From Rhodospirillales bacterium (GTDB lineage: Bacteria > Pseudomonadota > Alphaproteobacteria > Rhodospirillales > Casp-alpha2), in contig JAEPMA010000017.1 in the NCBI GenBank assembly GCA_017644185.1, positions 1 through 52,720 on the forward strand: DNA of 52,720 nt, written 5' to 3'. The notes under the pieces were generated by a model. The model did not search any database. It was given only the letters and a program-made list of their open reading frames with translations, and was not told the origin of the DNA. The translations under genes and the position numbers were made by a program. The first letter of the stretch is position 1; the number at the start of each line of letters is the position of its first letter. Below are positions 1 to 9,554 of this stretch, piece by piece.

Positions 1-913
1 TCTGCAGATGATCCTGGAGGTTCTCCCCCACGTCACGCCGGTCGGCACGCACCTTGATGCCGTGCTCCGACAACAGCTTGCCCGGCCCAATGCCCGAGAC
101 CTGCAATATCTGTGGCGAGCCGATGGCGCCCGCCGACAGGATCACCTCGCCACCGGGCTTCAGCATCGCCTCGGTGCGCTGGCCGCCCTGCTTATAAGCG
201 AAACCCGCAACTTTCTTGGGATCGTCGTCATCGAACAGAATTTCGATGGCGGGTGCGTTGACGACGACATCAAGATTGTCCCGGTGCTCGACCGGGCGCA
301 GGTAACCGACCGCCGTCGACCAGCGTTTGCCGTTGTGGGCGGTCAATTGGAAGTATCCCGCGCCTTCCTGCTTCTCGCCGTTGAAATCGGTGCTTCTCGG
401 GATTCCGTTCGCTTCGGCCGCCGCGATCAACGCCTCGCAGACGTCCCGCTTGGCGCGCATGTCGGAGACCTTGAGCGGCCCACCCGACCCGTGATGATCG
501 TCGCCGCCGCGTTCCTGATCCTCGGCCCTTTTGAAATACGGCAGGACATCCGCGTGCGACCAGCCCGGGTTCCCCAACTGCCGCCAGTGATTGTAGTCCT
601 CCGCCTGACCCCGGATATACAGAAGCCCATTGATCGAACTGGACCCCCCTAATACCTTCCCGCGTGGCCAGTCGAGACGGCGGCCCGCCAGCCCCGGTTC
701 GGGTTCGGTCTTGTAACACCAGTCGGTTTTCGGGTTATGAAGGGTTTTGAAGTAACCAACGGGGACGTGAATCCAGGGATTGGAATCGCGCCCGCCCGCT
801 TCGAGGAGCAGGACGCGCATTTCCCTGTCGGCGCTCAACCGGTTCGCCAGAACACACCCTGCCGAACCCGCGCCGACGATGATATAGTCGTATAAACTGT
901 CCGCATCGCCCAT
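1..913 (-). CDS. GMC-family oxidoreductase (choline dehydrogenase-like), 3' end outside window
   Basis: FAD-dependent glucose-methanol-choline oxidoreductase; the family oxidises alcohols to aldehydes. The first 304 codons are present and the frame runs open off the left edge. The N-terminus has the ADP-binding GAGSAG motif (about residues 15-20). The first GMC signature (GKVLGGSSSINGLLYIRGQ) follows near residue 90, and the second (GSPQILQVSGIGP) lies near residue 270. The catalytic His region is off the window. The ATG is preceded by only a weak AGGG-like site. The gene diverges from an IclR regulator across 100 bp, so it is probably a target of that regulator and may supply substrate to the downstream kinase/enolase operon. 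The substrate cannot be told from sequence: choline-, glycol-ether- and aliphatic-alcohol-type GMC enzymes look alike here. Confidence 0.93.
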   Translation of the reverse strand, partial: MGDADSLYDYIIVGAGSAGCVLANRLSADREMRVLLLEAGGRDSNPWIHVPVGYFKTLHNPKTDWCYKTEPEPGLAGRRLDWPRGKVLGGSSSINGLLYIRGQAEDYNHWRQLGNPGWSHADVLPYFKRAEDQERGGDDHHGSGGPLKVSDMRAKRDVCEALIAAAEANGIPRSTDFNGEKQEGAGYFQLTAHNGKRWSTAVGYLRPVEHRDNLDVVVNAPAIEILFDDDDPKKVAGFAYKQGGQRTEAMLKPGGEVILSAGAIGSPQILQVSGIGPGKLLSEHGIKVRADRRDVGENLQDHLQ

Positions 914-930
914 GCTGGACCCTAACCAGC

Positions 931-947
931 TTGCAAAAAAGTTGCAA
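931..947. promoter_or_regulatory. Pair of TTGCAA palindromes in the GMC/IclR divergent promoter region
   Basis: The self-complementary hexamer TTGCAA occurs at 931-936 and 942-947, offset by 11 bp, about one helical turn. It lies 18 bp upstream of the GMC start and within the only control region shared with the IclR gene. This spacing suits a dimeric regulator bound on one DNA face, so it is a candidate operator for the IclR protein. Nothing but position supports the assignment. Confidence 0.3.
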
Positions 948-1013
948 CAATGAAACTCTATGTTCCATAAATGAGAATTATAGCGGTTTTATTGTGATTT
1001 TGGAGAAACACCC

Positions 1014-1775
1014 GTGAAGGATGACTCGAACGCCGGTTCCCGGTCGATCCGGGTCCTGGAACTTTTAGAAGTGGTCTGCGATATGGACCGCCCGGCGACG
1101 GCGCTGGATATCGAGGTCGCGTCGGGTCTCCCCAAAGCGACCGTTCACCGGCTTTGTAACCTGTTACTGGATGAAGGCTATCTGCGCCGCGACGTCAACG
1201 GACGCGGCTACGAGGCGGGTGAGCGCTTTTCCCGTCTCGCCCTCAAACTTTTATCGAGCCAGAGCGGGCGGGGCGAACGTCACGCCATTCTTGAGAATCT
1301 CACCCGCGAGATCGGCGAGACCTGCAACATCGCGCTCCCGCTTCAAACCTCGATGCAGTACCTCGACCGGGTCGAAAGCGAATGGCCGTTACGGATCCAG
1401 CTTCCTATCGGCTCGCACGTGCCGCTTCACTGCACGGCGAGCGGCAAGCTCTATCTGTCCAGCCTGCCCCGATCACGGCGTGAGCGGCTCATTGCCAAGC
1501 TGCCTTTGGAACCGAAGGCGGCCAACACCATCACCGACGCGGATAAATTGATGAGCGCGCTCGACACCATCGCCAAATCGAAAATCGGCACCGACAACGA
1601 AGAGTTCATTCCGGGCATGGTCGCGGCGGCCGTCCCCGTCACCGACAAAACCGGCAAACTGCTGGCGACTCTCGCGACCCACGGCCCGGTGGTGCGGATG
1701 AGCTTTGAACAAGCCGTCGCGCACGTCCCCCGCCTCCAACAAGCCGCGCAAGAGATCGCAGCGTCCTTCGAATAA
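1014..1775 (+). CDS. IclR-family transcriptional regulator
   Basis: Predicted local regulator of 253 aa, the usual IclR length. An N-terminal winged helix-turn-helix lies at about residues 25-62, with the recognition-helix region LPKATVHRLCNLL. The C-terminal IclR effector-binding domain covers about residues 85-250 and contains the typical GSHVPLHCTASGKLYLS segment. IclR proteins commonly sense small organic acids or aromatics and control adjacent catabolic genes. The start is a GTG with GGAG upstream at 1002-1005. The stop TAA overlaps the ATG of the following kinase by one base (TAATG), so the regulator is translationally coupled to the operon it probably controls, which allows autoregulation. 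Confidence 0.92.
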   Translation: MKDDSNAGSRSIRVLELLEVVCDMDRPATALDIEVASGLPKATVHRLCNLLLDEGYLRRDVNGRGYEAGERFSRLALKLLSSQSGRGERHAILENLTREIGETCNIALPLQTSMQYLDRVESEWPLRIQLPIGSHVPLHCTASGKLYLSSLPRSRRERLIAKLPLEPKAANTITDADKLMSALDTIAKSKIGTDNEEFIPGMVAAAVPVTDKTGKLLATLATHGPVVRMSFEQAVAHVPRLQQAAQEIAASFE

Positions 1776-2779
1776 TGCAAAGACCCGACGACATTCTGGA
1801 TGCGCTTATCGCGGGGGGACTTCTCGGCCCCGGCGACACGCCCGACTGCACCCCTTTAACGGGGGGCGTCAGTTCCGATATCTGGCGGATCGACCTGGAC
1901 ACCGGGCCGATCTGCGTCAAACGCGCGCTCGCCAAATTGAAAGTCGCCGCCGACTGGCAAGCGCCTGTTTCCAGAAATGCCTACGAAGTCGCATGGATGC
2001 AGACGGTCCGCGCGATCAATCCCGATGCGGTCCCCGGCATTCTCTATCACGACCCGGGGACGGGTATGTTCGCGATGAGCTACCTACCCGCCGAGACGGC
2101 GCCGTTGTGGAAAGCACAGCTTCGCGACGGGATCGCGGACCCGGAAAGCGCTGCCGCCGTCGGGCGTATCCTCGGTCAGATTCATACGATGACGTCGAAA
2201 GACCCGGCGATCCCCGCCCGCTTCGACAACGACGACATTTTCCACGCGATCCGCCTGGAACCCTATCTGTTGGCGACCGCCGAAGCGTGTCCGGATGTTT
2301 CATCCCGGCTCAGGGAACTCAGCGACATCACGGCGGCGAACAAGGTCGCCCTGGTGCATGGTGATGTCAGCCCCAAAAACATCCTGATCGGCCCGAAAGG
2401 CCCGATCTTTCTGGATGCGGAATGCGCCTGGTTCGGCGACCCGGCCTTCGATCTCGCGTTCTGCCTCAACCATCTTCTTTTGAAATGCTTATGGACGCCT
2501 TCCGCGCGCGATGGGTTTAAATCCTGCTTCGAAGCGCTTTGCCGTTCCTACGAAGAGACGACGTCGGCGATGGATGACCGCGAGATCGTCAGGCGCACGG
2601 CGCACCTTCTCCCTGGTCTGTTCCTAGCCCGCGTCGACGGAAAGTCCCCCGCCGAATACATCACCGAAGACCAAGACAAGGACCATGTCCGCAAAGTCGC
2701 GCGCGAGTTTTTGACAAATCCCTGCGATCATCCGATAGACATGAACGATGCGTGGCACGCGCACCTGAATAAAAACTAA
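1775..2779 (+). CDS. APH/choline-kinase-fold small-molecule phosphotransferase
   Basis: ATP-dependent kinase of the aminoglycoside phosphotransferase superfamily, 334 aa. A glycine-rich loop (LTGGVSSDIWRI, residues 28-39) and an ATP-contacting Lys49 are visible. The Brenner motif is HGDVSPKN (195-202, catalytic Asp197), followed by the metal-binding LDAE (213-216) and GDPAFDLA. Members phosphorylate hydroxyl groups of small molecules such as choline, homoserine, methylthioribose or antibiotics. A resistance role is unlikely because the gene is locked between an IclR regulator (1-bp overlap) and an enolase paralogue (28 bp downstream). I infer that it makes a phosphorylated hydroxy-acid or alcohol for that enolase-like enzyme. 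The real substrate is unknown. Confidence 0.82.
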   Translation: MQRPDDILDALIAGGLLGPGDTPDCTPLTGGVSSDIWRIDLDTGPICVKRALAKLKVAADWQAPVSRNAYEVAWMQTVRAINPDAVPGILYHDPGTGMFAMSYLPAETAPLWKAQLRDGIADPESAAAVGRILGQIHTMTSKDPAIPARFDNDDIFHAIRLEPYLLATAEACPDVSSRLRELSDITAANKVALVHGDVSPKNILIGPKGPIFLDAECAWFGDPAFDLAFCLNHLLLKCLWTPSARDGFKSCFEALCRSYEETTSAMDDREIVRRTAHLLPGLFLARVDGKSPAEYITEDQDKDHVRKVAREFLTNPCDHPIDMNDAWHAHLNKN

Positions 2780-2807
2780 AACGCCACTTCGGGCGGGGGA
2801 AACAATC

Positions 2808-4100
2808 ATGGCCAAATATTCGATCAAGAACGTCCACGCGCGCCGGGTCTGGGACTCGCGCGGCCGCCCGACGGTGGAGGTCGAGGTCGAACTGGAGGGT
2901 GGCGCCAAGGGGATCGCCATCGCCCCCGCCGGCGCATCGCGGGGCCGGTTCGAAGCCATCGACCTTCGTGACGGCGGCAAGACTTTCGGGGGCTGGGACG
3001 TCACCAACGCGGTGAAGGCCGTCGACGTCGAGATCGCGGAAGTCTTGAAGGGTCAGGACGTGCGCGAACAGGAACGGCTCGACAAGTTCATGATCGAGCT
3101 GGATGGCACCAGCAACAAACAACGCCTGGGCGGCAACGCGACGGTCGCGGCGAGTATGGCGTTGGCGCATGCGGCGGCGGCCTACGAGGGTGTGCCGCTC
3201 TGGCAATATCTGCGTGGAGATGGTGAGGGCGAGGTCTTCTTACCGCTGCCTGAGATCCAGATTTTCGGTGGCGGCGCCCACGCTTCAAGGCGCGTCGACG
3301 TGCAGGACTTCATGGTCATCGCCACGGGGGCGAAAAGCTTCAGGGAAGCGCTCGATTTCACGGCGGAAGTTTATCTGAGCGCGGGCAGGATCATGGCGGA
3401 CGCGGGCAAGCTTGCAGGCGTCGCCGACGAGGGCGGGTACTGGCCCGACTTCGATACCAACGAAGAAGCGATGGAAACCCTTGTCCGCGCGATCGAGGGC
3501 GCGGGCTTTACGCCGGGTCAGGAAGTGTCGATCTCGCTCGATATCGCCGCGTCGGAATTCGGCGAGAACGGGAAATACACCCTCGCCAAGGACGACCGCA
3601 CGATGTCGAGCGAAGAACTCTGCGCGATGCTGGTCGACTGGATGGAACGCTATCCCGTCGTCTCGATCGAGGACCCGTTGGGTGAGGACGATCCGGACGG
3701 TCTGATGAAGTTCACCTGGGCCGTCGGCGAAAAACTGCAGGTCGTCGGTGACGACGTTCTCGTGACCAACGCCGAGCGTGTGCGCGCCGCCGCCAAGGAC
3801 AAGCTCTGTAATTCGCTTTTGTGCAAGCCCAACCAGGCGGGCACCCTGACCGAGGCGAAGGCCGCCTTCGACGCCGCCGAAAAGGCGGGTATGGGGCGGA
3901 TCGTTTCGGCCCGTTCGGGTGAGACCGAGGACAGCACCATCGTGCACATGGCGGTCGGCTGGGGCGCGCCGCAGCTCAAGGTGGGCTCGTTCACCCGCTC
4001 CGAACGCATGGTCAAATGGAACGAGGGGCTTCGTATCGCCGACACTCTTCCGGACCGCGACGGTCCGTTGATGCCGAAATCCGCCTTCCACTGGCGCTGA
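2808..4100 (+). CDS. Enolase paralogue with altered active site
   Basis: Full-length enolase fold, 430 aa, with strong RBS GGGGGAAA. Retained: His158 (GGGAHA), Glu208 (DEGG, the general acid/base Glu), metal ligands Asp245, Glu288 (SIEDP) and Asp315 (VGDD), Lys340 (general base), Arg369-Ser370 and Lys391. Changed: the SHRSGETED motif of true enolases reads SARSGETED, so the active-site His is Ala368. The EFM Glu is Asp167. Mobile loop 1 reads PAGASRGR instead of PSGASTG. The context is catabolic (IclR, kinase, transporter), not the usual alphaproteobacterial glycolytic setting of eno. I infer a dehydratase acting on a different 2-phospho-hydroxyacid made by the upstream kinase. A redundant enolase with relaxed selection is the alternative. 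It should not be annotated simply as glycolytic eno. Confidence 0.82.
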   Translation: MAKYSIKNVHARRVWDSRGRPTVEVEVELEGGAKGIAIAPAGASRGRFEAIDLRDGGKTFGGWDVTNAVKAVDVEIAEVLKGQDVREQERLDKFMIELDGTSNKQRLGGNATVAASMALAHAAAAYEGVPLWQYLRGDGEGEVFLPLPEIQIFGGGAHASRRVDVQDFMVIATGAKSFREALDFTAEVYLSAGRIMADAGKLAGVADEGGYWPDFDTNEEAMETLVRAIEGAGFTPGQEVSISLDIAASEFGENGKYTLAKDDRTMSSEELCAMLVDWMERYPVVSIEDPLGEDDPDGLMKFTWAVGEKLQVVGDDVLVTNAERVRAAAKDKLCNSLLCKPNQAGTLTEAKAAFDAAEKAGMGRIVSARSGETEDSTIVHMAVGWGAPQLKVGSFTRSERMVKWNEGLRIADTLPDRDGPLMPKSAFHWR

Positions 4101-4101
4101 C

Positions 4102-4986
4102 ATGAAGGCGACCGATGCGCTGCTCGCCGTCTCCGTCGCCGTCATCTGGGGCGTTGCCTTCGTCCTGACCGAATTCGCGTTACAGAGCTTCACCCCCGCA
4201 CAATTGGTCGGTTTTCGCTTCGTCATGGCCGCCGCCCCGGTTTTCTTCGTGAAAAAGCCGGATATTCCGTGGTGGCTGTTGATCGCGCTCGGCCTTTTTC
4301 TCTTCACCGGCCAGTTCATGTTCCTGTTTTTCTCGTACAAGGCCGGGATGCTGCCGGGCCTGGCGTCGGTCGCCACGCACACGCAAGCGTTGTTCACGAT
4401 CATCATCGCCGCGTTCGTGCTCCGCGAAATCCCGACCCCAAAACAGATCTCCGCCGTCGCCATCGCGTTCATCGGGCTTGGGATGGTGTTCGCGAGTGTC
4501 GGGGGTGAGCTGACGTATCTGGGCCTCTGCCTCACCCTCACAGGCGCGGTCAGTTGGGCGATCGGGAATAACATCCTCAAACGCCTGGGCCACGTCGACA
4601 TGCTGGCGTTGATGTTCTGGCTCAGCCTCGTGCCGCCGATCCCCGCCTTCGCGGTGTCTTACATGTTCGGCGACAGCTTCGATTTTATTGAGACATTCAA
4701 GAACGCATCGACGATCAGCATTCTGTCGCTCCTTTATCTCGGGATCGCATCGACCGCGGTCGCGTTCGCGATCTGGGGCAGGTTGCTGAACACCTACCCC
4801 GCCGTGATGGTGACGCCGTTCGCGTTGTTCGCGCCCTGTGCCGGCGTACTGACGGCTTATCTTGTTTTCGGAGAAGGTTTCGGCACACTGCGCGGTGCGG
4901 GTATGATCCTGATCATGATCGGCGTCGCGGGAACGATCCTGCTGGGGCCGAAGCGCGAGAAACCGAGCGGAGTGGACGCCCAATGA
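4102..4986 (+). CDS. EamA/DMT-superfamily transporter
   Basis: Polytopic inner-membrane protein of 294 aa with about ten hydrophobic segments in two EamA repeats (roughly residues 5-135 and 148-282). It has the characteristic openings AVIWGVAFVLTEFAL and TGAVSWAIGNNILK. DMT carriers move metabolites, mostly outward; the direction cannot be read here. The start lies one base after the enolase-paralogue stop and its own stop overlaps the next gene by ATGA, so it belongs to the same operon. It probably moves the pathway substrate or an intermediate. Confidence 0.88.
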   Translation: MKATDALLAVSVAVIWGVAFVLTEFALQSFTPAQLVGFRFVMAAAPVFFVKKPDIPWWLLIALGLFLFTGQFMFLFFSYKAGMLPGLASVATHTQALFTIIIAAFVLREIPTPKQISAVAIAFIGLGMVFASVGGELTYLGLCLTLTGAVSWAIGNNILKRLGHVDMLALMFWLSLVPPIPAFAVSYMFGDSFDFIETFKNASTISILSLLYLGIASTAVAFAIWGRLLNTYPAVMVTPFALFAPCAGVLTAYLVFGEGFGTLRGAGMILIMIGVAGTILLGPKREKPSGVDAQ

Positions 4987-5396
4987 GCATCACCGGATCG
5001 TGCCTCTGTGGTAGTGTGACCTTCGAATACACGGGCGACGTCGGGGCGGCGGCTTACTGCCACTGCACGGACTGCCGCAAGACGACCGGGAGCGCCTTCA
5101 ACATCTCCATCGGCCTGCCGTCGGAGGGGTTCTCACTCACCAACGGCGCCCCGAAAGAATTCACCAAGACCGCCGACAGCGGCCAGCCGATCACCCGGCA
5201 TTTTTGCTCAGATTGCGGCGCGCCGCTTTACACGTCGTCATCGCTGAACCCCGCCATGATCTATGTGAAGGCGGGCGCGCTCGACGACCCGACGGCCGTC
5301 AAACCGGCGTACCAGAGCTGGACGCGGTCCCGCGTAACCTGGTCGAAGATCGATGATGATCTGCCCGGCTTTGAAACCGACCGGACGCACGGGTAA
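4983..5396 (+). CDS. GFA/CENP-V-fold zinc protein
   Basis: 137-aa protein of the Mss4-like GFA family, named after glutathione-dependent formaldehyde-activating enzyme. The zinc sites are visible: GSCLCGSV (about 6-13), CHCTDCRKTTGSAF (about 27-40) and HFCSDCGAPLY (about 68-78). It is the last gene of the IclR operon, overlapping the transporter stop by ATGA. Most GFA proteins lack proven activity; the founding member binds S-hydroxymethylglutathione. If the divergent GMC enzyme generates an aldehyde, a thiol-adduct or detoxification role would fit, but that is inference. Confidence 0.85.
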   Translation: MSITGSCLCGSVTFEYTGDVGAAAYCHCTDCRKTTGSAFNISIGLPSEGFSLTNGAPKEFTKTADSGQPITRHFCSDCGAPLYTSSSLNPAMIYVKAGALDDPTAVKPAYQSWTRSRVTWSKIDDDLPGFETDRTHG

Positions 5397-5400
5397 AAAA

Positions 5401-7293
5401 TCAGTCGAGAAAGCGCCCCTGGCCGCGAAGCCGGTCGACGAACACATCGATCAGCCGCCTCAAAACCTTGTCGTTGTCGCCCAGCTTGCCCAGGCGCGCC
5501 GCAAGGTCATCCTGCGTGATGACCGTCAGTTTCGCCTTGCCGACGACCCGTGCCGACGCCATGCGCGGCTGATTGTCGATCAAAGACATCTCCCCCAGGA
5601 TATCGCCGCGCCCAAGCGTCGCCAGCACCACTTCCTCGTTCCCTGATTTGCGATAAACCTGCACCCTGCCGTCCACCACCAGATACGCCTGGTCGGCCGT
5701 GTCGCCTTCTTCGAACAGGATTTCCCCGTCTTCGACCTCGCGCCGTTCGATCTTCTGTTTCGTCACGGTCGCATCCTCCATGGTAAATTCAACGACGCTA
5801 CCTTCTTGCGCCGCCGGGTCGTCTTTCGCGGGTTCACCCTTCCGCGTTTCGTCCTTGGTGTCGTCGTCACGGGACACCAATCTATCCAATGTGTCGGTGA
5901 ACAGCGCCCGCCATTTTTCCGGGAGCGCGTCCGACGCCAGCTTCTCTTTCAAAGCCGCCATCACGTGCGTCACCTCATCGCGCGGCATGTCGGCCGGCAC
6001 GAGTGACGACAAGGACGTCAATTGCTGGACCAACCGCGCCATCACGTTCAGCACCGCCTGTTCGTTTTTCTGGCCGATCGGCGAACCGATCATATCGAGC
6101 AGAAAGCCCAATCTGACCGCGCGGTATGGCAGCAACGCCAACACATGGCTGATCGCCTCTTCCGTCGTCAGGTCGTCTTGTTCCGAGAACGCGATCCTGG
6201 CCCGGCCGACGATGGCGCCCGCCATGTCCGGTCCGCCCGCGATCCCTGCCGCATCCGTCACCTCGCGGATCAGCCCCCTGAGCGCATCCTGGTCCGCCTT
6301 CGGCCCCTCGCGCGTCAACGGCCTAATACCGGCGATGGTGCGCGCGACACGGCCCAGCAACACCTCCTCCGTCTTCGGCATCGCCCGTTCCGCCATGAAG
6401 GTGTTGAAGGCCTCGATGCAGGACCGGCTGTTCTTGGTCTTACAACGTCCCTGTGCCAGCCGGATCATGTCGCGAAGCGCGGTCAGCGGGTCGGCGAAAC
6501 CACCGAAAAGATCCGTCACCGCGGTCGGACTCTCGAGAACTTCCGCCGCGATCCCGTCCAGAAATTCCTCGACAAGCTTGTCCGGCGCCTTTTCGGCGAG
6601 TTCCATGATCAGCAGCAATTTATCAGACCAGTCACCCCGTTTTTGTACCGTCAGCGCCAGCGCCCCCAAAACGAACGCATTACGTCCATCACCTTTCGGG
6701 GCCTGATCGGCAAGCCCCTTGAGGCCCAGGTTTTCGAGCATGCCGACACGTGTCTGATCCTCGCCCGCGACACGCGCGTTTTCTTTGATCTCGTTGAACA
6801 CGGCATAAAGCTTGTCGTTGCAGTCCGCGGGCTTCTTGCCGGTCTTCTTGGCGTGGATCGTGCCGATCCGGCTCATCGCGGCCGGGAACAATTTGTCGTC
6901 GCGCTCGAGTAACCTCAGCATCCCGTAATCGAACGCCAGTTCGAGTGCCGTGACGCCCTTCTGCTCAAGAAGTTCACGCAGCAACCGCCCCGCCGCCTGC
7001 CGTGCCGGGAATTTATAAAAATCGGCGAGGGTGTCGCAGACCGGCGCTTCCTCGATCGGGACGATCTTGACCGGCTTGTCGCCGAGATCGAACATTTCCT
7101 CTATAAGGATTTCCTCGTCGCCCGTGCGCAGGCTTTCGGCCACCACGCGCACGCCTTCGAAGCGCTTTTCCCCGATCAGGATTTCGGCGCGTTCGACCGC
7201 CGCCGAGCGCACCTCGTGGTGCGAGTCGACGAGCCACCGCTCATCCTCGTAAATAAACACGTCGTAGGTCTTCTGCGCGAGATTCTGCCGCAC
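5401..7293 (-). CDS. Large cyclic-nucleotide-binding-domain protein without DNA-binding domain
   Basis: 630 aa. The C-terminal 125 residues form a cNMP-binding (CAP_ED) domain containing DGRVQVYRKSG and the phosphate-binding cassette GEMSLIDNQPRMASA with its conserved Arg. About 500 residues precede it; they look helical and soluble and I do not recognise a family. There is no helix-turn-helix after the cNMP domain, so this is not a CRP-type regulator. A non-transcriptional cAMP/cGMP effector or scaffold is more likely. The start is GTG and no clearly better ATG exists upstream. It converges on the GFA gene with 4 bp between stops. A class III nucleotide cyclase is encoded at 36859-39390. Confidence 0.8.
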   Translation of the reverse strand: MRQNLAQKTYDVFIYEDERWLVDSHHEVRSAAVERAEILIGEKRFEGVRVVAESLRTGDEEILIEEMFDLGDKPVKIVPIEEAPVCDTLADFYKFPARQAAGRLLRELLEQKGVTALELAFDYGMLRLLERDDKLFPAAMSRIGTIHAKKTGKKPADCNDKLYAVFNEIKENARVAGEDQTRVGMLENLGLKGLADQAPKGDGRNAFVLGALALTVQKRGDWSDKLLLIMELAEKAPDKLVEEFLDGIAAEVLESPTAVTDLFGGFADPLTALRDMIRLAQGRCKTKNSRSCIEAFNTFMAERAMPKTEEVLLGRVARTIAGIRPLTREGPKADQDALRGLIREVTDAAGIAGGPDMAGAIVGRARIAFSEQDDLTTEEAISHVLALLPYRAVRLGFLLDMIGSPIGQKNEQAVLNVMARLVQQLTSLSSLVPADMPRDEVTHVMAALKEKLASDALPEKWRALFTDTLDRLVSRDDDTKDETRKGEPAKDDPAAQEGSVVEFTMEDATVTKQKIERREVEDGEILFEEGDTADQAYLVVDGRVQVYRKSGNEEVVLATLGRGDILGEMSLIDNQPRMASARVVGKAKLTVITQDDLAARLGKLGDNDKVLRRLIDVFVDRLRGQGRFLD

Positions 7294-7522: not shown

Positions 7523-8146
7523 ATGAAAACCATCGAATACTTCTATTCCGCCCACTCGGCGTACGCGTACATCGGCTCGAAACTGCTGATGGAGACCGCG
7601 AGAGACAAGGGCGCGCGGATCGATCATCGGCCGATGGACCTGCGCGCGGTTGTCGCTGCGACCGGCCCCGGCCCCCACAATTCAAGAACCCCGGAACGGC
7701 GTTTGTATTTCTCGGGCCGCGAGATCGAACGCTGGGCCGAATATCGGGGGGTCGGCATCCTTCCCTGGCCGGCCTTTCACGACCACGAGATCGCGTCATC
7801 CAATGGCATGCTGATCGCCGGCTTGTTGCAGGGCACCAACATCGACGCCCTCGCGCACCGGTTTTTGGAAGCGCACTGGCGCGACGACGCCGATCTGGCC
7901 GATAAAGACACCCTCGCCGCCCTTGCCCGTGATGTGGGGCTCGACCCGGCGCCATTATTAGGCGCCATCGGCTCGCCCGAGGTGACGGCGGTCTACGAGG
8001 CCAATACGAAAGAAGCGATCGAACGGTCGGTGTTCGGCTCCCCCACCTACTTCGTCGACGGCGATATGTTCTATGGGCAGGACCACCTGGAACTCGTCGC
8101 CCGCGCCCTCGAACATCCGTTCAAGGGAACGTGGCCGAGGGGGTAA
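7523..8146 (+). CDS. 2-hydroxychromene-2-carboxylate isomerase-like DsbA-family protein
   Basis: 207 aa, thioredoxin-fold DsbA/kappa-GST family. The N-terminus IEYFYSAHSAYAYIGSKLL matches the HCCA isomerase pattern, in which a Ser replaces the DsbA CxxC. The C-terminal FGSPTYFVDGDMFYGQDHL is the family's cis-Pro and substrate-site segment. Characterised members isomerise 2-hydroxychromene-2-carboxylate in naphthalene degradation using glutathione. No other aromatic-degradation gene is adjacent, so the substrate here is open. It stands alone and is followed by a hairpin repeat. Confidence 0.85.
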   Translation: MKTIEYFYSAHSAYAYIGSKLLMETARDKGARIDHRPMDLRAVVAATGPGPHNSRTPERRLYFSGREIERWAEYRGVGILPWPAFHDHEIASSNGMLIAGLLQGTNIDALAHRFLEAHWRDDADLADKDTLAALARDVGLDPAPLLGAIGSPEVTAVYEANTKEAIERSVFGSPTYFVDGDMFYGQDHLELVARALEHPFKGTWPRG

Positions 8147-8163
8147 CCCCCTCACCAATTATA

Positions 8164-8268
8164 TCCCCCTCACCTAGCCTCTCCCCCTTTAAGGGGGAGA
8201 GGGATAAGTTCACGTCGTGTTTCGGCAGGGTCCCTCTCCCTCACGCATGTGGGGGAGAGGACAGGTGA
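8164..8268. repeat. Family A intergenic hairpin repeat, copy 1
   Basis: About 105 bp. Outer arms CCCTCACCT and AGGTGA pair with each other, enclosing two inner hairpins: CTCTCCCCC with GGGGGAGAG, and CTCTCCCTC with GGGGGAGAG. It sits between convergent genes. Other copies are at 9652, 13322, 18644, 41311, 45495 and 49107. The strong G/C stems could act as a bidirectional terminator or RNA-processing site. Confidence 0.8.
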
Positions 8269-8289
8269 CGGGGCACTGACGAAAGGCCG

Positions 8290-8625
8290 TCAGCCCTTCT
8301 GCCCTATCCCCCGCATCGCATGCGCCAGGATCTCGCGGCGGATGTCGTCGGGCTGGCCCTCGACCGCGCCCGCTAACGCCGAAAGCTCGCGCCGGAGCCC
8401 GTGAAGTTGATCAAGTAATGACAACACCACCGGCATGGCCTCGCTATCGATCTCCAACTCGACCCGGCATTCGCGGATCAACCTTACCCGGGCGATGTCG
8501 GCGTCGGAGAATCTGGCGGTGTCTCCCCGCCCTTCCGGACGGACCCATCCGCGCGAGACCCAACGGCTCAATTGCGCCTCGTCCAGCCCCTCGACCACGT
8601 CGAAGATTTCCGCATACGCGATCAT
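8290..8625 (-). CDS. cbpM: CbpM-type chaperone modulator (MerR-like)
   Basis: 111-aa protein of the CbpM/MerR-HTH type: N-terminal helices with the [13 protein letters not shown] wing region, then [21 protein letters not shown]. In Escherichia coli CbpM binds the J-domain of CbpA and inhibits it. Its ATG overlaps the cbpA stop by four bases (ATGA), so the two are translationally coupled, which fits a stoichiometric modulator. Confidence 0.85.
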
Positions 8626-9554
8626 GATCCGGCCTCCATCCCTTTGCGCGGGTTTTGATTCCGGCCTTTTTCCCAGCTTTCGAGGAACGCCTGCAGCTCG
8701 GCATCGGGTTCGTCGGGGAGGGCGACCTCTAATCTGATGTACTGATCGCCCTTCTGCTTGCTTTTCGGATCGAGCACGCCCCTGCCCTTCAATCGTAGGG
8801 TGTCGCCGGTGTTCGAATTCTTCGGGACCGTCATCTCAACCGTGCCCCCGACCGTCGGCACCTTCACCTTGCCGCCCAGCACGGCCTCGCTCAACGAGAC
8901 CGGGAGCGTCATGTGGATGTTGCTGTCTTTGCGGGTGAAGAACGCGTGCGGCTGGATATGCACTTCGATATAGGCATCCCCCGGCGGCCCGCCGCCGATC
9001 CCCGGCATCCCCTTGCCCTTCAGGCGCAACGTCTGTCGGTCCCTCACCCCCGCCGGTATCGAGATATCGAGGGTCTTCCCGTCCGCCATCGTGGCGCGGC
9101 GCGTGGTCCCGTTCGCCGCATCCAGGAACGAGACATCGAGGGTGTAGCTGATATCCCCACCCCGGATCTTCACCCCTTCCCCGCTACGTCCCTGAGCACG
9201 CCCGGCGCGCCCGCCGAACAGATCGGCGAAGATATCGCTCATGTCCTCGAAATCGCCGCCGCCATAGCGCGCGTACTTCGCGCCCTCACCGGCGTCGGCG
9301 TAGGTGCGGTAGTACTGCTGTTCGGGTCGTTCGTGGCCCTCGGCGTCGATTTCACCGCTATCGAAGCGTTTGCGTTTATCAGGGTCCGACAACAGGTCGT
9401 GGGCGCTGCTGATGTCCTTGAAGCGCGCCTCCGCCTTGGTGTCGCCCGGATGCAGGTCGGGGTGGCATTCCTTCGCCAGCTTCCTGTACGCCTTGCGGAT
9501 GTCTTCCGCCGACGCGTCTTTCTGAACCCCCAAAAGTTCGTAGGGATCGCCCAT
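8622..9554 (-). CDS. cbpA: DnaJ-type co-chaperone (CbpA-like)
   Basis: 310 aa. The N-terminal J-domain (about residues 3-70) includes the DnaK-stimulating HPD tripeptide in [10 protein letters not shown]. It is followed by a Gly-rich linker and two C-terminal substrate-binding domains (about 120-290, with the [14 protein letters not shown] and [15 protein letters not shown] segments). The Cys-rich zinc finger of true DnaJ is absent, so this is the CbpA type. It acts with DnaK on misfolded proteins and may bind DNA. It is the first gene of the cbpA-cbpM pair. Confidence 0.92.

What the first reader, a model, noticed from the sequence alone, without database searches (positions are those of the whole stretch)
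1..5396. IclR-controlled kinase plus enolase-paralogue operon: a candidate undescribed catabolic route
Seen: IclR, APH-type kinase, enolase paralogue, EamA transporter and GFA protein are packed with overlaps of 1-4 bp or gaps of 1-28 bp, and a GMC alcohol oxidoreductase diverges from the shared control region. Known: IclR proteins control neighbouring catabolic genes, and enolases act on 2-phospho-hydroxyacids. Inferred: a substrate is imported, oxidised by the GMC enzyme, phosphorylated by the kinase and dehydrated by the enolase-like enzyme. I know of no pathway with this gene set.
Basis: partly seen in the sequence, partly recalled or inferred. Interest (0 to 1): 0.78.

Follow-up and report, generated by a model that had tools for sequence, protein, structure and literature searches.

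The report
Kinase–enolase pair with altered active site
Bacteria and some archaea carry a second, subtly rebuilt version of the sugar-burning enzyme enolase that usually travels with its own kinase, which points to an undescribed two-step way of turning a small hydroxy-acid into a phosphoenolpyruvate-type compound.

Summary
IclR–APH kinase–enolase–EamA–GFA form a tight run at 1014-5396, with a divergent GMC gene cut off by the contig start; the genome also has an ordinary enolase.

Across lineages only the kinase–enolase pair is steadily conserved: kinase directly upstream of the enolase in 77 of 80 loci, and the pair again in Actinomycetota, Bacteroidota and haloarchaea. GMC, IclR, EamA and GFA beside it are almost confined to the window's genus.

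The paired enolases split from ordinary ones (SH-aLRT 100) and share Glu168→Asp (103 of 103) and His373→Ala (102 of 103), against 0 of 30 ordinary enolases. These residues handle the water at C3. Metal, phosphate and catalytic residues are kept in 102-103 of 103.

Best reading: the kinase phosphorylates the C2-OH of a 2,3-dihydroxy acid and the tuned enolase dehydrates a product that ordinary enolase serves poorly. Neighbours point to a glycerate-type acid feeding PEP. Substrate and stereochemistry are unproven; plain D-glycerate is not excluded. A dehydratase-bypass reading is weakened by IlvD/EDD genes in two operons. Ten paper searches listed no description of the pair.

The parts
1..913 (-). 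GMC alcohol oxidoreductase, N-terminal 304 aa, cut by contig start; divergent; genus-level partner
   Evidence: PF00732 168 bits; choline-dehydrogenase subfamily NF002550 373 bits, below its cut-off of 605; full-length relative in L035 (544 aa); distribution in ten loci
914..1013 (.). 100-bp shared control region between GMC and IclR
   Evidence: compared by eye with L035 only, no operator established
1014..1775 (+). IclR-family regulator
   Evidence: PF01614 and PF09339; best NCBIfam PcaR/PcaU/PobR family, below cut-off
1775..2779 (+). APH-fold small-molecule kinase (core of the module); HGDVSPKN catalytic loop intact
   Evidence: PF01636 61 bits; nearest NCBIfam S-methyl-5-thioribose kinase, far below cut-off; invariant H195 G196 D197 N202 D214 in 30 members; model pLDDT 92
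2808..4100 (+). Enolase-family enzyme of the kinase-paired clade (core of the module); D167 and A368 replace Glu168/His373 of ordinary enolase
   Evidence: PF00113/PF03952; TIGR01060 457.7 bits; residue columns; tree
4102..4986 (+). EamA/DMT-family transporter; genus-level partner
   Evidence: PF00892; closest O-acetylserine/cysteine exporter, below cut-off
4983..5396 (+). GFA-domain protein; genus-level partner
   Evidence: PF04828 122 bits

Best explanation
The core is a two-enzyme module. Step 1 (inferred): the APH-fold kinase puts a phosphate on the C2 hydroxyl of a 2,3-dihydroxy acid. Step 2 (inferred from kept catalytic residues): the paired enolase removes water across C2–C3 and makes PEP or a 3-substituted PEP. 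The enolase has its own water-site pair (Asp/Ala for Glu168/His373), most likely because the kinase product is not a good substrate for ordinary enolase. The likeliest acid is glycerate-type (glycerate in an unusual form such as the L-enantiomer, or a C3-substituted glycerate) arising from sugar-acid cleavage or 2-keto-acid reduction. Shown: the pairing, the clade, the residue changes, the kept catalytic set, the usual coexistence with ordinary enolase and with a MOFRL-type glycerate 2-kinase gene. Not shown: substrate, position of phosphorylation, product.
For: Pairing: kinase hit directly upstream on the same strand in 77 of 80 loci (hit-to-hit gap -1 to 152 bases); 38 of 39 genomes with both genes among 100 genomes, own included; all 22 plasmid records that I opened, of 32 with a kinase hit, carry this enolase in the fetched stretch, 14 of them next to the kinase on the same strand. 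Signature: Glu168→Asp 103/103, His373→Ala 102/103, against 0/30 ordinary enolases; metal ligands, Arg374, Ser375 and Lys396 103/103, Lys345 and Glu211 102/103; again in 23 of 23 enolases found beside the kinase in the class sample. PMC8996150 (passages): one legend has the water 3.5 Å from C3 of PEP bonded to His367 and Glu168. Four ordinary-type enolases in genomes with several enolases have no kinase in the stretch fetched, and one relative without a kinase (G014) has lost catalytic residues. A MOFRL glycerate 2-kinase gene coexists in 39 of 42 kinase-bearing genomes among 100, own included, and in 25 of 27 pair-bearing genomes of the class sample against 131 of 260 without the kinase. Within two genes in 102 non-redundant loci: FAH in 23, 2-hydroxyacid dehydrogenase in 20; PEP carboxylase next to dehydrogenase–kinase in Rhizobium.
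Against: No substrate was tested. Three kinase-bearing genomes (two lineages; G161, G385, G400) have no such enolase, have an ordinary one by residues, and lack MOFRL; their kinases form one subclade (SH-aLRT 93) placed inside the family. That hints that the kinase product can be D-2-phosphoglycerate. The recurrent dehydrogenase belongs to the D-isomer family, which fits D-glycerate better than L-glycerate. Neighbour counts use reference proteins picked from near the pair, so near/far contrasts are inflated; SDR (16 near, 13.6 expected) and ALDH (2 near, 1.5 expected) are at background. Many loci show the pair with no labelled partner. Another legend of PMC8996150 names Glu209 and Glu168, not His367, as holders of the attacking water.
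Confidence: 0.55

Rival explanations
1. Plain redundancy: the kinase is a new-type D-glycerate 2-kinase and the enolase makes PEP from ordinary D-2-phosphoglycerate, as a co-regulated extra copy.
For: 2-hydroxyacid dehydrogenase near the pair in 20 of 102 loci; PEP carboxylase in Rhizobium; the three kinase-only genomes lack both known glycerate 2-kinase families (MOFRL 0 of 3; PF02595 0 of 3) and have an ordinary enolase. Each neighbour route could end in D-glycerate (inference).
Against: Fixed replacement of two residues that are invariant in 30 of 30 ordinary enolases; the pair occurs mainly where a MOFRL gene and an ordinary enolase already exist; a D-glycerate kinase would not need a private enolase (inference).
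Confidence: 0.27
2. Dehydratase bypass: kinase plus enolase replace the sugar-acid dehydratase by making a C2-phosphate and eliminating water, in a route-III-like pathway (sugar dehydrogenase, 4-dehydrogenase, FAH hydrolase).
For: In Roseibium and Paracoccus records the pair lies in LacI–kinase–enolase–FAH–SDR–sugar ABC–SDR operons with no dehydratase among the listed genes (that gene table is incomplete). In L111 the FAH protein is closest to 2,4-didehydro-3-deoxy-L-rhamnonate hydrolase (350 bits, cut-off 500) and one SDR to D-xylose 1-dehydrogenase (283 bits, cut-off 400).
Against: In L092 an ILVD/EDD dehydratase sits in the same operon between FAH and SDR; L110 carries its relative in the same place, and L183 one three genes beyond the enolase. 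The enol-phosphate product would need a further dephosphorylation step. Pairs standing alone are not explained.
Confidence: 0.12
3. The enolase-like protein is not a catalyst of this chemistry (moonlighting or scaffold), or the pair is biosynthetic.
For: One plasmid copy (Enterobacter, L117) lies beside a long non-catabolic-looking operon and has Lys for Glu211 and Gly for His373; one MAG copy (L037) has Asn for Lys345.
Against: Catalytic, metal and phosphate residues kept in 102-103 of 103 at each position checked.
Confidence: 0.06

Closest known systems
Enolase (phosphopyruvate hydratase, TIGR01060, EC 4.2.1.11)
   Same: Same family models, metal, phosphate and base residues; the window protein is about 41-47% identical to the ordinary enolases of 100 related genomes
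   Different: Separate clade in the tree; Asp and Ala at the Glu168/His373 site; paired with its own kinase; coexists with ordinary enolase
D-glycerate 2-kinase plus enolase (GckA/TtuD MOFRL type, GarK/GlxK type; names recalled)
   Same: Same overall logic: hydroxy-acid to 2-phospho-acid to PEP
   Different: Kinase matches the APH family, not PF05161 or PF02595; a private enolase comes with it; MOFRL usually also present
S-methyl-5-thioribose kinase (TIGR01767; 2olc)
   Same: Nearest named kinase: all 30 members scanned match weakly; best PDB profile hit E 1e-17
   Different: Window protein 49.8 bits against a cut-off of 275; no methionine-salvage enzyme among the eight window proteins scanned
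Route III oxidative pathway (2,4-diketo-3-deoxy sugar acid, SDR then FAH hydrolase; recalled)
   Same: FAH and SDR partners in Rhodobacterales and Roseibium operons
   Different: Adds kinase and enolase; not the partner set of the window

Membership tests
Enolase (EC 4.2.1.11) | Passes the curated equivalog cut-off | tested here: met
   457.7 bits, cut-off 300
Enolase (EC 4.2.1.11) | Metal ligands, phosphate-binding Arg/Ser, catalytic Lys345, Lys396, Glu211 present | tested here: met
   102-103 of 103 clade members at each position; yeast numbering recalled; Synechococcus Glu168, Glu209, Asp246 checked on the sequence printed in the paper, His367 = yeast His373 not checked
Enolase (EC 4.2.1.11) | Glu168 and His373 at the C3/water site | tested here: not met
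   Asp 103/103, Ala 102/103 against Glu and His in 30/30 ordinary enolases
Enolase (EC 4.2.1.11) | Dehydrates D-2-phosphoglycerate | not testable with these tools
   needs assay
Known glycerate 2-kinases | MOFRL (PF05161) or Gly_kinase (PF02595) domain | tested here: not met
   kinase matches PF01636 only at E 0.001
Known glycerate 2-kinases | Phosphorylates glycerate at C2 | not testable with these tools
   needs assay
S-methyl-5-thioribose kinase | Passes TIGR01767 cut-off 275 | tested here: not met
   49.8 bits
Route III sugar-acid pathway | Sugar-acid dehydratase, 4-dehydrogenase SDR and diketo-acid hydrolase together at the locus | tested here: not met
   absent from the window genes scanned; in relatives SDR and FAH in some, IlvD in L092 and its relative in L110
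APH-fold kinase superfamily | HGDxxxxN loop and metal-binding Asp | tested here: met
   H195, G196, D197, N202 and D214 invariant in 30 aligned members; PF01636

The most novel reading that the evidence does not exclude
A kinase family and a rebuilt enolase, spread through at least three bacterial phyla and haloarchaea, form an undescribed metabolic step: C2-phosphorylation of a non-standard hydroxy-acid (for example L-glycerate or a C4-or-larger acid) followed by an enolase reaction on a substrate other than D-2-phosphoglycerate. That would be a second natural enolase reaction with its own dedicated kinase.
Probability: 0.5. Interest if true: 0.78.

Novelty: new variant of a known kind. Interest (0 to 1): 0.64.

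Why it matters
Enolase is usually treated as a one-substrate housekeeping enzyme, and the records name most of these proteins 'phosphopyruvate hydratase', so the changed active site is hidden by annotation. If the pair has its own substrate, an unrecorded entry into PEP metabolism exists in many marine and soil bacteria and in haloarchaea. The conserved pair plus two diagnostic residues makes the question directly testable with two purified proteins and a small panel of acids.

Tried and rejected
Rejected: that the enolase replaces a missing housekeeping enolase. Seven relatives first showed only the paired form at E 1e-60; a looser search found further enolase-family pieces in four of them (G009, G027, G046, G090), at contig ends in at least three, and none in G041, G045 and G047, which are draft assemblies; the residues of those pieces were not inspected. 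Rejected: that the pair replaces the MOFRL glycerate 2-kinase. Weakened: dehydratase bypass, after an IlvD/EDD gene turned up inside one operon and its relative in another.

Led nowhere: ten paper searches, judged from the listings; of papers I saw passages of PMC6365646, PMC9007349 and PMC8996150 only. The enolase structure job never finished (last poll). My first gene caller chose antisense ORFs over some enolases and was replaced by a codon-based one, which still mis-called some genes, for example in L033. The GMC–IclR control region gave no clear operator.

Rows dropped or pooled: the collection scan kept the best 80 of 204 relatives; loci at 85% or more identity were merged (131 to 102) and L199 was left out for lack of called genes; four divergent members were tallied apart; all 103 members are counted although no kinase was found at L060, L064 and L065 (the last two begin at or near a contig edge). 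Ten of 32 plasmid records with a kinase hit were not opened. In L156, counted as adjacent, the kinase is annotated in pieces and the enolase matched only from residue 107. The 30 ordinary enolases are the best-scoring of 60 genomes of the window's phylum. Tables were tallied from the printed outputs.
Full report
OBSERVATION. The gene run is as described: IclR 1014-1775, APH kinase 1775-2779, enolase 2808-4100, EamA 4102-4986, GFA 4983-5396, with junctions of -1, +28, +1 and -4 bases, and a divergent GMC gene at 913..1 that runs off the contig. The window is the whole of contig C8 of the assembly. A second enolase lies on contig C28 (438 bits for PF00113; the window's has 282) and has the ordinary residues.

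WHAT IS CONSERVED. A scan of the genome-contig collection (84,980 species) with the enolase found 204 stretches that encode a relative, of which the best 80 were kept. In 77 of the 80 the kinase hit lies directly upstream on the same strand, with -1 to 152 bases between the hits; of the three misses L064 and L065 begin at or near a contig edge, while L060 has no kinase in view. Among 100 genomes (own included) the kinase occurs in 42 and the enolase clade in 40; 39 have both, 38 of them adjacent on one strand with a gap of -1 to 67 bases. In a sample of 290 genomes of the class the kinase occurs in 30 including our own; of the other 29, 23 have the enolase on the same contig and strand (22 within 80 bases, one 1.7 kb off), one has the two on different contigs, each near a contig end, two have it elsewhere, and three lack it. 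A tblastn of the kinase against plasmids hit 32 records; I opened 22 and all 22 carry an enolase of the clade in the fetched stretch, 14 of them next to the kinase on the same strand, L156 being damaged. These include Rhodococcus and Embleya (Actinomycetota), Persicobacter (Bacteroidota) and two haloarchaea. By contrast, among ten loci searched GMC and IclR hits came from loci of the same genus (a partial IclR in L034/L007) plus a 48% GMC hit in L060.

THE ENOLASE IS REBUILT AT ONE SPOT. In a joint alignment of 30 ordinary and 103 clade enolases, the residue equal to yeast Glu168 is Asp in 103 of 103, His373 is Ala in 102 of 103 (Gly in the Enterobacter copy L117), and the Gly before Asp-Glu211 is Ala in 102 of 103 (Cys in L117); none of the 30 ordinary enzymes shows any of these. 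Metal ligands (Asp246, Glu295, Asp320), Arg374, Ser375, Lys396 and His159 are kept in 103 of 103, Glu211 in 102 (Lys in L117), Lys345 in 102 (Asn in the MAG copy L037) (yeast numbers recalled, Synechococcus numbers checked for three residues, not for His367). A structural paper on Synechococcus enolase (PMC8996150, passages) says that the hydrogen-bond network for PEP hydration involves Glu168 and His367, and one legend puts a water 3.5 Å from C3, bonded to these two; another legend names Glu209 and Glu168. Among the 23 enolases found beside the kinase in the class sample, a set chosen by kinase and not by enolase, all 23 show the signature. The clade is separated from the 30 ordinary enolases of the window's phylum with SH-aLRT 100; ordinary enolases of the other phyla were not in that tree.

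LINKAGE TESTED FROM THE OTHER SIDE. I fetched six further enolase places without a linked kinase. Four (G081, two of G063, G137; these genomes hold several enolases) have the ordinary residues and no kinase in the stretch fetched. One (G142) has the paired signature and lies in a Rhizobium-type cluster with a kinase fragment at the edge of the stretch. One (G014, 49% identical to the window's, not put in the tree) comes from a genome without a kinase match at E 1e-20 and has lost catalytic residues. So the altered residues go with the kinase.

NOT A REPLACEMENT. All 29 kinase-bearing genomes of the class sample other than our own hold a further enolase judged ordinary by identity and place; I checked the residues in five of them (G161, G209, G385, G400, G416), and all five are ordinary at GDEGG and SHRSGE. 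The MOFRL glycerate 2-kinase family is present in our genome and in 39 of 42 kinase-bearing genomes, own counted. In the class sample MOFRL occurs in 25 of 27 pair-bearing genomes, own included, 0 of 3 kinase-only genomes and 131 of 260 genomes without the kinase (Fisher p 1e-5 for the first against the last). Genome size and kinship confound this. The other glycerate kinase family, PF02595, occurs in 1 of 29. The kinase-only genomes (two lineages) carry kinases that form one subclade (SH-aLRT 93) placed inside the family, on weak inner branches, which leaves open that the kinase can make D-2-phosphoglycerate.

NEIGHBOURHOODS. Many loci hold the pair with no labelled partner. Recurring partners within two genes, in 102 non-redundant loci, are FAH-type hydrolase (23), D-2-hydroxyacid dehydrogenase of 280-370 aa (20), LacI regulators (16) and SDR (16, close to its background of 13.6); the reference proteins came from near the pair, which inflates near/far contrasts. 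Rhodobacterales and Roseibium: LacI, kinase, enolase, FAH close to 2,4-didehydro-3-deoxy-L-rhamnonate hydrolase, SDRs and a sugar ABC importer. L092: an IlvD/EDD dehydratase between FAH and SDR; L110 has its relative in the same place; L183 one three genes beyond the enolase. Rhizobium: PEP carboxylase, dehydrogenase and kinase in a row, opposite an operon with enolase, HpaD-like extradiol dioxygenase, cupin and Zn-alcohol dehydrogenase. Rhodococcus: FAH–dehydrogenase–enolase–kinase–FAH. Haloarchaea: kinase–enolase amid mandelate-racemase-type enzymes and aldolases.

MECHANISM (inference). Kept catalysis means a 2-phospho-3-hydroxy-carboxylate as substrate; the changed residues sit where C3 and its leaving water are. 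A kinase that travels with its own enolase, mostly in genomes that already own glycerate 2-kinase and enolase genes, implies that ordinary enolase does not serve the kinase product well. The partners (hydroxy-acid dehydrogenase, diketo-acid hydrolase yielding an acid plus pyruvate, PEP carboxylase) fit a glycerate-type acid and a PEP-type product. D-2-phosphoglycerate itself is not excluded. The kinase is an intact APH-family enzyme, nearest to methylthioribose kinase but far below that model's cut-off.

KNOWN OR NEW. Ten full-text searches in the open-licence PMC library listed no paper that by title or abstract start describes such a pair (one search aimed at the active site); most subscription papers are not in it. 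I file it as a new variant of a known kind: an enolase-family enzyme with a private kinase.

Noticed in passing
L159 13019-19204, L113, L160, L155 7845-15184: A recurring set of HpaD-like extradiol dioxygenase, cupin, Zn-alcohol dehydrogenase, FMN reductase and FAH around the pair in Rhizobium, with much of the set in Rhodococcus and Sphingobium, suggests a ring-cleavage pathway tied to the module.
   Followed up: partly
L113 6082-8838, L159 8091-10844, L160 8092-10845: A plasmid-borne PEP carboxylase stands at the head of the dehydrogenase–kinase run in Rhizobium.
   Followed up: no
L117 10211-24118: An Enterobacter plasmid carries a divergent kinase and an enolase relative with Lys for Glu211, beside a long operon with aminotransferase, U32 peptidase, iron redox enzymes and MFS transporter that looks biosynthetic.
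   Followed up: no
L208 7995-9431: Decayed relative of the paired enolase in a genome without the kinase, about 1.6 kb from an ORF that matches the 2-hydroxyacid dehydrogenase family.
   Followed up: partly
L119 12639-13667, L157 13005-14000: An ilvC-annotated ketol-acid reductoisomerase and a small cupin sit next to the pair in both haloarchaea opened.
   Followed up: no
L042 9647-16733: In Bauldia litoralis the pair is followed by the dehydrogenase, two Gfo/Idh proteins, a TPP enzyme and an AP-endonuclease-2-type protein, resembling an inositol-type cluster.
   Followed up: no
L037 enolase 8001-9314: One otherwise intact clade member has Asn at the position of catalytic Lys345; sequencing error or real change unknown.
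   Followed up: no
window 5401-7293: A 630-aa protein with a C-terminal cyclic-nucleotide-binding domain follows on the opposite strand; its cluster lies near the pair in eight loci.
   Followed up: no
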